Positions 1-1,197 of a stretch of 64,000 nucleotides of DNA are shown here, one piece after another (positions within the stretch are counted from its first letter, which is position 1; each line of letters opens with the position of its first letter). This DNA is from Butyrivibrio sp. CB08. GTDB lineage: Bacteria > Bacillota > Clostridia > Lachnospirales > Lachnospiraceae. The translations under genes were made by a program, and so were the position numbers. Under the pieces are notes generated by a model, which saw nothing but the letters and a program-made list of their open reading frames with translations, was not told the DNA's origin and made no database searches. The stretch lies in the NCBI RefSeq assembly GCF_003625485.1, contig NZ_RAIR01000006.1, positions 62,001-126,000 of the forward strand. The letters are read 5' to 3'.

Positions 1-870
1 AACAGCCTCGATGGTGCGCTGGTTCTCGTAAACAGCGTGCTTAGCCTTCTTCTGCATATCAGGGTCTGTTAAAAGTCCCTTGTTGGCCTCAAACTCCTCG
101 ATTGAAAGATCACCAAGTCCCTTGATATCAAGGCTCTTCTGAAGAATTGCAAGAGCCTCTTCGCACATGCTCCTTCTTGCGTTGTACTGGGAGTCAGTGA
201 GCTTGTGCTTTTTATTGGTGTTAGCAATGATGATCTTGGCGCCATCAAGCTTAATTGGTGCATATTCAAAAGAGAGATCGGCTGTATCTAAGAAGATCGC
301 GCTGCCTTCCTTACCCATGGCTACTGCAAACTGATCCATGATACCACAGTTACATCCGTTGTAGTTATTCTCAGAATACTGTCCGATAAGGGCAAGGTCC
401 TGATTAGAAACCTCAAATCCATAGAGATCTCTTAAAATGAAACCTGTCAGCACTTCAAGAGACGCTGAAGAAGAAAGACCTGAACCATTAGGAATATTTC
501 CATAGATGACCATGTCAAATCCCTTGTCTATCTTCATTCCTCTTCCAGCAAAGGCCCATACAACACCCATTGGATAGTTGGTCCAGCCCGCCTCTTTCTT
601 GGCCTCAAGATCTGACAGAGAAGCCTCAATAACACCAGCCCTGTCCTGATTTACTGAATAGAAACGGATCTTGTCATCATCCCTCTTAGCAGCTGCTCCA
701 TAAGTACCAATTGTCAGTGCACAAGGAAATACATGACCTCCGTTATAATCTGTATGTTCCCCAATAAGATTAACCCTTCCAGGTGCAAAATACGCCTTAA
801 CCTTATCATTCTTACCAAATGCCTTCTCAAAGCTCTCAAGAACCGCCTTCTTCATCTCCTGATCAATCAT
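1..870 (-). CDS. galK: Galactokinase, N-terminal 290 residues (runs off left edge)
   Basis: Phosphorylates alpha-D-galactose to galactose-1-phosphate, the first step of the Leloir pathway, in the cytoplasm. The translation shows the galactokinase signature near residues 29-40 (GRVNLIGEHTDYNGG) and the GHMP-kinase ATP loop (PNGSGLSSSAS). Start ATG at 870 has GGAGG five bases upstream. About 290 of the usual ~390 residues are visible; the C-terminus lies outside the window, so the gene is partial only because of the window edge. The 145-base leader contains a 13-bp palindrome (988-1000) that could be an operator. The family call is safe; the next downstream gene cannot be seen. Confidence 0.95.
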   Translation of the reverse strand, partial: MIDQEMKKAVLESFEKAFGKNDKVKAYFAPGRVNLIGEHTDYNGGHVFPCALTIGTYGAAAKRDDDKIRFYSVNQDRAGVIEASLSDLEAKKEAGWTNYPMGVVWAFAGRGMKIDKGFDMVIYGNIPNGSGLSSSASLEVLTGFILRDLYGFEVSNQDLALIGQYSENNYNGCNCGIMDQFAVAMGKEGSAIFLDTADLSFEYAPIKLDGAKIIIANTNKKHKLTDSQYNARRSMCEEALAILQKSLDIKGLGDLSIEEFEANKGLLTDPDMQKKAKHAVYENQRTIEAV

Positions 871-1000: not shown

Positions 1001-1016
1001 TGTCAAAATGTTAAAT

Positions 1017-1197
1017 GGGGCAGTTCCCATAGTCTATTTCCACGAGTCATTTTGACGAGGAGATGATTCATGGAACGCAAAAAAGAAGGATATCCGATTT
1101 CTTTGAATAACATGAAATGAGGATATCCTTCTTTTTTAAGTTCTAATGAATCACGACGCAGTCAACGCGAGTGAAAATAAACTATGGGAACTGCCCC
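1017..1197. repeat. 181-bp interrupted palindrome (MITE- or REP-like hairpin) containing a bidirectional terminator
   Basis: The outermost 17 bp (1017-1033, GGGGCAGTTCCCATAGT) are exactly complementary to 1181-1197. The innermost 17 bp (1079-1095) are exactly complementary to 1121-1137, with a 25-base loop between. The middle portions pair imperfectly. The inner stem has six A/T on both outer sides, so it can terminate transcription in either direction and probably ends the telA transcript. The right tip lies two bases beyond the telA stop codon. AAT flanks both tips, which could be a 3-bp target duplication. No second copy is visible in this window and it encodes no protein. Confidence 0.75.

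What the first reader, a model, noticed from the sequence alone, without database searches (positions are those of the whole stretch)
1017..1197. 181-bp palindrome with perfect 17-bp outer and inner stems at the telA stop
Two exact 17-bp stems bracket an imperfectly paired middle, AAT flanks both tips, and no protein is encoded. It looks like a small non-autonomous element (MITE or REP family) that also supplies a terminator to telA.
Basis: seen in the sequence. Interest (0 to 1): 0.5.

Follow-up and report, generated by a model that had tools for sequence, protein, structure and literature searches.

The report
Palindromic mobile element after telA gene
The 181-base hairpin after the telA gene is one copy of a family of small, gene-less mobile DNA elements scattered through Butyrivibrio bacteria, whose two arms keep changing in step, and here it sits where close relatives have telA's normal stop signal.

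Summary
The palindrome is real and far beyond chance. It is the only copy in its own genome, but relatives occur in 47 of 79 genomes of its genus, Butyrivibrio, with 44 places in one. A shallow family-wide search matched two genomes, both of this genus; the other 395 gave none. Copies share a 145-nt framework, while their stems differ in sequence and stay complementary: 29 of 29 pairs change on both sides; G-U in 22 of 3007 cells.

One branch is a clear MITE: 219-bp units, a recent burst, 8-bp target duplications. Another rides inside IS1182-family insertion sequences. Of 121 copies, 56 lie in convergent and 10 in divergent gaps. Close relatives have a plain terminator between telA and galK; the window has the element there instead. 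IS1272, an IS1182-family member, is reported to replace stem-loops (PMC5678879).

Best reading: a MITE that displaced telA's terminator and probably terminates transcription both ways. Which transposase moved this copy is not shown. The paired arm evolution is the unusual part.

The parts
1017..1197 (.). whole palindromic element (181 bp), the window's copy of the family
   Evidence: 5 of 10 G045 copies have the same palindrome size, 180-182 bp
1017..1033 (+). outer arm / presumed terminal inverted repeat, left (GGGGCAGTTCCCATAGT)
1181..1197 (-). outer arm / presumed terminal inverted repeat, right (exact reverse complement of 1017-1033)
1035..1179 (+). 145-nt family core used for the covariance model R1
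   Evidence: 145 bits for this copy
1054..1068 (+). conserved 5' framework block GACGAGGAGATGATT
   Evidence: alignment (19 copies); the exact two-block pattern gave 12 stretches, 12 of 12 in records titled Butyrivibrio
1079..1095 (+). inner stem, left arm (A-run, then 11 bp that vary between copies)
   Evidence: covariation
1096..1120 (+). conserved terminal loop region GATTTCTTTGAATAACATGAAATGA
1121..1137 (+). inner stem, right arm, ends in a T-run; with 1079-1095 a predicted two-way intrinsic terminator
   Evidence: not called by the consensus scan
1149..1163 (+). conserved 3' framework block AATCACGACGCAGTC
1001..1014 (-). block TTAACATTTTGACA upstream of galK, conserved in relatives; the element sits between it and the telA stop
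   Evidence: about 188 nt after the telA stop here, 61 and 66 in L091 and L092
1200..2375 (-). telA (PF05816); its stop codon abuts the element
1..870 (-). galactokinase gene (PF10509, PF00288), cut by the window edge, downstream of telA

Best explanation
The 181-bp palindrome is a MITE: a gene-less mobile element whose long outer arms are its terminal inverted repeats and whose inner hairpin is a bidirectional intrinsic terminator. It belongs to a family found across the genus Butyrivibrio. Members insert mostly in the 3' intergenic space of genes and are moved in trans by DDE transposases. One branch leaves 8-bp target duplications. Another branch is carried in the transposase leader of IS1182-family insertion sequences. 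At telA an ancestor of this genome and its relative G075 gained the element beside telA's terminator; in this genome the plain terminator is gone and the inner hairpin does its job. Shown by sequence comparison: the family and its copy number, a recent burst, target duplications in one branch, carriage by IS1182, and a terminator in close relatives where the window has the element. Inferred: which transposase moved this copy, shared ancestry with the G075 half element, one-step replacement of the hairpin, and termination of transcription in the cell.
For: Family: 28 of 79 genus genomes by DNA similarity, 47 of 79 by covariance model, 44 distinct places among 54 matches in G023. Recent mobility: pairs of G043 copies at 94-99% identity over a unit that ends 37 nt either side of the core in complete copies, flanks unrelated. 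Target duplication: 6 of 25 sites with GTTACAATTCAG-type ends repeat at least 7 of 8 flanking bases at exactly 8 bp, 0.08 expected from mismatched flanks; no comparable excess at 5, 6, 7, 9 or 10. IS1182: four G006 places on two contigs share a 2.11-kb unit at 98.9-99.9% with unrelated flanks; its 544-aa protein passes NCBIfam IS1182 (347.9 bits, cut-off 270); the palindrome lies between the IS end and the transposase start there and in G008, G014 and G026 copies, not in copies of G001, G002, G017, G019 and G023-C15. telA site: the model finds the full element only in the own locus among 31 sources; close relatives L091 and L092 have a hairpin terminator and the galK block at 61 and 66 nt, against 188 here. 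Ends: GGGGCAGT here, GGGGCTGT in the IS1182 copies. Position: 56 convergent, 55 tandem, 10 divergent of 121.
Against: Only one copy in its own genome and no match to this IS1182 transposase there, so movement in this strain today is unlikely. Transposase and element do not go together: G001, G002, G011, G017, G025 and G053 have transposase matches at E below 1e-80 but no element; G043, G045, G032, G007, G024 and G010 have 19-39 listed element matches and no transposase match. The window copy has no exact 8-bp repeat, and its ends match the IS1182 ends at 7 of 8 bases only. G075 has a half element plus a plain terminator, so loss of the terminator need not have been one replacing event. L102 (G072) has a weak partial model match, 27.4 bits, after telA.
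Confidence: 0.82

Rival explanations
1. A structured non-coding RNA family (or RNA signal) that happens to be multicopy; the conserved loops are the functional part and the stems covary under RNA selection.
For: Very strong covariation: 29 of 29 pairs changed on both sides, 98.5% of cells paired, 779 two-sided cells against 172.8 in shuffles. Conserved blocks. In the inner hairpin G-U (22 cells) exceeds A-C (8 cells). In the alifold-based pair list of 10 G043 copies, G-T cells (16) outnumber A-C (1); that structure was predicted with G-U allowed, which favours such columns.
Against: G-U is only 22 of 3007 cells (0.7%) against 14 of 213 pairs (6.6%) in 10 tRNAs of the window and loci. With a fold that forbids G-U, strict single mismatches in the outer stem are 69 A-C and 41 G-T, and for G043 11 A-C and 5 G-T, so neither strand is favoured as RNA there. 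No Rfam family reached its gathering score. Copies lie at different sites and burst recently.
Confidence: 0.12
2. Only a local terminator of telA, unrelated to mobile DNA.
For: Single copy in the genome; abuts the telA stop; close relatives have terminators at this place.
Against: Homologous copies in 46 other genus genomes; shared 145-nt framework; recent burst and target duplications elsewhere in the family.
Confidence: 0.03
3. REP-type palindrome mobilised by a Y1 (RAYT / IS200-like) transposase.
For: Palindromes between genes; Y1_Tnp in 60 of 79 genomes.
Against: G069 (12 matches to the model, listed as 100% complete), G045, G028, G035, G049 and G050 carry the element without a Y1 match, and G001 and G002 carry Y1 without the element. 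The 8-bp duplications and inverted ends of one branch are what DDE transposases leave (general knowledge).
Confidence: 0.04
4. The solo copies are decayed left ends of IS1182 elements left after deletion, not units that move by themselves.
For: Several G023 copies (for example L060, L061, L062, L082, L086) have IS1182 similarity reaching the end hairpin, L085 reaches the start of the transposase, and L178 carries transposase fragments; 20 of 120 loci show IS similarity outside the palindrome, full copies included.
Against: None of the G043 and G045 loci tested showed it; G043 has sharp ends with 8-bp duplications; both genomes have no match to this transposase.
Confidence: 0.2

Closest known systems
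MITEs of bacteria (non-autonomous derivatives of DDE insertion sequences; recalled)
   Same: Short, gene-less, inverted terminal repeats, many dispersed copies, 8-bp target duplication in one branch, resemblance to an IS in another
   Different: Arms and inner stem differ in sequence between copies while pairing is kept; termini differ between sub-families; nested double palindrome around a conserved framework
IS1182 family, in particular IS1272 with inverted-repeat-replacing transposition (PMC5678879; abstract, passages and section 22 read)
   Same: Transposase family confirmed for the IS copies that carry the palindrome; GGGGC-type ends; a plain terminator of close relatives is missing where the window element sits; no target duplication seen at the window copy
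   Different: IS1272 carries a transposase; stem-loop replacement was not observed directly here, and G075 leaves a two-step history possible
REP / BIME and ERIC-type intergenic palindromes (recalled)
   Same: Intergenic palindromes, often near 3' ends of genes, many copies
   Different: As recalled, those keep a conserved stem sequence; here the stem is what varies. No association with Y1 transposases
Template-switch mutation as a source of compensatory changes (PMC8794818; passages read)
   Same: Paired changes and near-perfect stems with little wobble are what such copying would leave
   Different: Shown there on RNA genes; here a mobile DNA element, and the mechanism is not shown

Membership tests
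MITE | multiple dispersed, closely related copies without coding capacity | tested here: met
   47 of 79 genomes, up to 44 places in one; G043 pairs at 94-99% identity; no ORF of 60 aa wholly inside the window copy
MITE | terminal inverted repeats at sharp element boundaries | tested here: met
   G043: similarity of complete copies ends 37 nt either side of the core, at GTTACAATTCAG...CTGAATTGTAAC. Window copy: 17-bp exact arms, its own boundary not proven by a second copy
MITE | target-site duplication | tested here: inconclusive
   met for one branch: 6 of 25 sites, 8 bp, 0.08 expected; not seen at the window copy
MITE | related autonomous element that shares its ends | tested here: inconclusive
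   IS1182 copies contain the palindrome, and GGGGCTGT resembles the window's GGGGCAGT; no parent found for the GTTACAATTCAG branch
IS1182 family (the carrier IS) | IS1182 transposase | tested here: met
   NF033551 347.9 bits, cut-off 270, for the G006 carrier; no match in the window genome
IS1182 family (the carrier IS) | replacement of a target stem-loop without duplication, as reported for IS1272 | tested here: inconclusive
   terminator in close relatives, element in the window; G075 keeps a terminator beside a half element
REP / RAYT system | co-occurring Y1 REP transposase | tested here: not met
   presence does not track the element
Structured ncRNA | match to a described RNA family | tested here: not met
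   no hit at gathering score; the best below-threshold hits are miRNA models
Structured ncRNA | G-U pairs tolerated on one strand | tested here: inconclusive
   G-U 22 of 3007 in the inner hairpin set, but above A-C (8); outer stem A-C 69 against G-T 41; G043 pair list shows more G-T
Intrinsic terminator | stable stem with a U-run | tested here: met
   17-bp stem ending in six U in both directions (these can pair with the A-run), -25.2 and -23.7 kcal/mol; consensus scan did not call it; activity not measured

The most novel reading that the evidence does not exclude
The arms are kept complementary by DNA-level copying from one arm to the other (template switching or hairpin correction), not by RNA selection. 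A mobile element can then drift through new terminal repeats and new terminator stems while staying a near-perfect palindrome, and its framework can end up with different transposon ends (IS1182-type, GTTACAATTCAG-type) in different species.
Probability: 0.4. Interest if true: 0.75.

Novelty: new variant of a known kind. Interest (0 to 1): 0.55.

Why it matters
If right, genomes of a common rumen genus carry up to dozens of mobile terminators at 3' ends of genes, and at telA one stands where close relatives have the host's own terminator. The family also gives several hundred natural replicates for a long-standing question: how both sides of a long stem change together. Within one genome there are stages from single mismatches to fully paired new stems. 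In practice, these palindromes appear to break draft assemblies: many G043 contigs start or end inside a copy.

Tried and rejected
Retron or ribozyme reading of the conserved loops: considered from the structure only, dropped for lack of an Rfam match and because of mobility. Small peptide in the element (GAGGAG then ATG, MERKKEGYP...): rejected, because the frame runs through the inner stem, which varies between copies. RAYT/Y1: tested, no association. Target-duplication search around all 130 unique copies without fixed ends: 7 with an exact 8-mer against a control mean of 1.7; only the branch with defined ends gave a clean result. In one search some of the 25 sites are overlapping alternatives (L276, L284 and L290 appear twice) and all stayed in the count; of the six with a duplication, four carry the core (L204, L207, L211, L236) and two are short palindromes without it (L286, L303). 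Simultaneous double changes at short times: not supported in the G043 burst, where pairwise counts at 96% identity or more give 22 one-sided and 0 two-sided differences, and the 84% bin gives 46 one-sided, 86 two-sided between Watson-Crick pairs and 12 other two-sided. These are pairwise counts, so one change counts many times. This fits mutation followed by correction or selection, not only one-step copying. An earlier mismatch count on 75 copies gave 57 G-T and 69 A-C; one search replaces it.

Limits: the background of gene orientation (3 convergent of 52 other gaps) is biased, because the loci are centred on element gaps. Candidates scored per genome: 10, 40, 150, 8, so copy numbers and absences are lower bounds. 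telA loci were fetched for 30 of the 77 genomes with a match. The alignment used 100 of the fetched loci (104 matches); one search left out the five G043 copies with a 55-nt insertion; one search used 10 of 15 G043 copies. The G066 IS copy is cut at its start and its leader could not be judged.

Papers: no paper in the library holds both 'miniature inverted-repeat' and Butyrivibrio. In the titles and abstract starts listed I saw no description of this family; those lists are capped, and only open-licence PMC papers are searchable.

Full report
Observation. The palindrome is as described. The outer arms 1017-1033 and 1181-1197 and the inner arms 1079-1095 and 1121-1137 are exact 17-bp reverse complements. 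The strand folds at -93.8 kcal/mol, z -12.8, 0 of 200 shuffles as good. It lies between the stop codon of telA (PF05816) and the upstream region of a galactokinase gene, both on the minus strand.

A family, not a single hairpin. In its own genome it has no second copy at E <= 0.001. In the genus, DNA similarity finds relatives in 28 of 79 genomes, own included. Aligning 19 copies gave a 145-nt core and a covariance model that finds matches in 47 of 79 genomes. Genome G023 has 54 matches, 44 distinct places once opposite-strand hits are merged. An exact core pattern in the GTDB collection gives 12 stretches, all in records titled Butyrivibrio; contig lengths there equal those of G022-C8 and G016-C2, which names the genus. 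In a family-wide sample of 397 genomes two matched, both of this genus, and the other 395 gave none, with 8 candidates scored per genome. The same pattern in viral contigs and a similarity search of plasmids gave nothing.

Anatomy. Copies have an outer stem, a conserved 5' block (about GACGAGGAGATGATTT), an inner stem flanked by an A-run and a T-run, a conserved loop (about GATTTCTTTGAATAACATGAAATGA), a conserved 3' block (about AAATCACGACGCAG) and the outer stem again. Framework and loop are conserved; both stems differ between copies and still pair. On 104 copies, 29 of 29 pairs have changes on both sides, 98.5% of cells pair, and 779 cells have two-sided changes against 172.8 in shuffles. 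G-U makes up 22 of 3007 cells and A-C 8, against 14 G-U of 213 pairs in 10 tRNAs from the window and loci. Strict single mismatches in the outer stem are 69 A-C and 41 G-T, so the wobble that RNA would tolerate on one strand is not favoured there. Against this, G-U exceeds A-C in the inner hairpin, and the alifold-based pair list of 10 G043 copies shows 16 G-T and 1 A-C cells, although a fold without G-U gives 5 and 11 for G043. In the G043 burst one-sided differences come first (22 against 0 at 96% identity or more) and two-sided ones accumulate later (46 against 86 in the 84% bin). I read this as mutation followed by restoration of pairing. Whether selection on two-way terminators or DNA-level arm-to-arm copying restores it is open.

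Mobility. In G043, pairs of copies at 94-99% identity share a unit that in complete copies is 219 bp, similarity stopping 37 nt on each side of the core at GTTACAATTCAG...CTGAATTGTAAC, with unrelated flanks. Among 25 sites with such ends, 6 have at least 7 of 8 identical flanking bases at exactly 8 bp, where 0.08 are expected; other lengths from 5 to 10 show no comparable excess. One of the six is in G032, and two are short palindromes with the same ends but without the core: 88 bp in G045 and 80 bp in G043. These ends occur 63 times in G043 and never in the reversed control pattern.

Carriage by IS1182. In G006 four copies lie inside a 2.11-kb unit repeated at 98.9-99.9% identity on two contigs with unrelated flanks. 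It encodes a 544-aa IS1182-family transposase (NF033551, 347.9 bits, cut-off 270; Pfam DDE domains). The palindrome sits between the IS end (GGGGCTGTCGC...) and the transposase start; the same holds for copies in G008, G014 and G026, while copies in G001, G002, G017, G019 and G023-C15 have the leader without it. Several solo copies in G023 keep the IS-end hairpin, and L085 the start of the transposase; L178 is a deletion derivative. The transposase does not track the element across genomes and has no match in the window genome.

The telA site. Of 31 telA-side sources (30 telA loci and L131) the model finds the full element only in the window's own locus; L102 has a weak partial match, 27.4 bits. 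A simple scan finds a terminator-like hairpin within about 130 nt after the stop in 23 of 30 loci; the own locus is one of the seven without. In three of the 23 (L103, L105, L106) the hairpin lies beyond the galK block, four (L110, L113, L114, L117) have no galK block in the stretch scanned, and L090 is the half-element case. In the close relatives L091 and L092 the galK block follows the stop at 61 and 66 nt with the terminator between; in the window it follows at 188 nt with the element between and no plain terminator. G075, whose TelA is the closest (98% identity), has the telA-proximal half of an element followed by a plain terminator, read from two contigs that overlap by 55 nt. I infer that the element arrived before these two lineages split and that the plain terminator was lost in the window's lineage. 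IS1272, placed in the IS1182 family in a passage of PMC5678879 (abstract, passages and section 22 read), is reported there to insert by replacing stem-loops without target duplications. The telA site fits that, and the window ends GGGGCAGT resemble the IS1182 ends GGGGCTGT, but G075 leaves a two-step history possible.

Function. Of 121 copies with genes on both sides, 56 are in convergent, 55 in tandem and 10 in divergent gaps; the gene on the 3' side faces the element with its stop in 98 of 128 cases, 91 of them within 100 nt of the core. The inner hairpin has a 17-bp stem ending in six U in either direction. I infer that copies, this one included, act as two-way terminators and are tolerated or kept for that reason.

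Verdict. I found no description of the family, which cover open-licence PMC text only. As a kind of thing it is a MITE; the paired, wobble-poor drift of its arms and the different termini on one framework make it a new variant.

Noticed in passing
L286:1501-1588 (G045) and L303:392-471 (G043): Short 80-88 bp palindromes with the same GTTACAATTCAG ends and 8-bp target duplications (8 of 8 and 7 of 8) but without the 145-nt core: a second, smaller MITE type.
   Followed up: partly
L208-L212 (G043), inside the 3' framework; similar stretch in L153 (G008) after a terminator: A 55-nt palindromic insertion (about GTATGACATTTCACTAAGCTCGAAAAAACCTCGCTAAGTGATCTGCACAT) nested inside some copies and present alone elsewhere: another small repeat family.
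   Followed up: no
G043 contigs (for example L198, L200, L208-L210; pattern hits at about position 125 of many contigs): Many contigs of this draft genome start or end inside a copy, so the element appears to fragment assemblies and hide its own copies.
   Followed up: partly
L102:1423-1495 (G072), after the telA stop: The telA terminator of this genome weakly resembles the family's inner hairpin (27.4 bits, E 0.002); it may be a worn remnant or chance.
   Followed up: no
L143, L144, L146, L147 (G003): Weaker matches limited to the inner part of the model (positions 31-118; 4 of 6 listed G003 matches) hint at a more distant sub-family. G052, G065 and G067 also have only weak best scores but were not looked at.
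   Followed up: no
L060 site (G023 and G004) and loci L148-L177: 2 of 30 fetched loci carry the element here, G023 and G004. In them the first hairpin after the stop resembles the IS1182 end hairpin, while relatives such as L150, L151 and L154 have a plain terminator after the same gene: a possible second case of terminator exchange, but the gene on the other side differs.
   Followed up: partly
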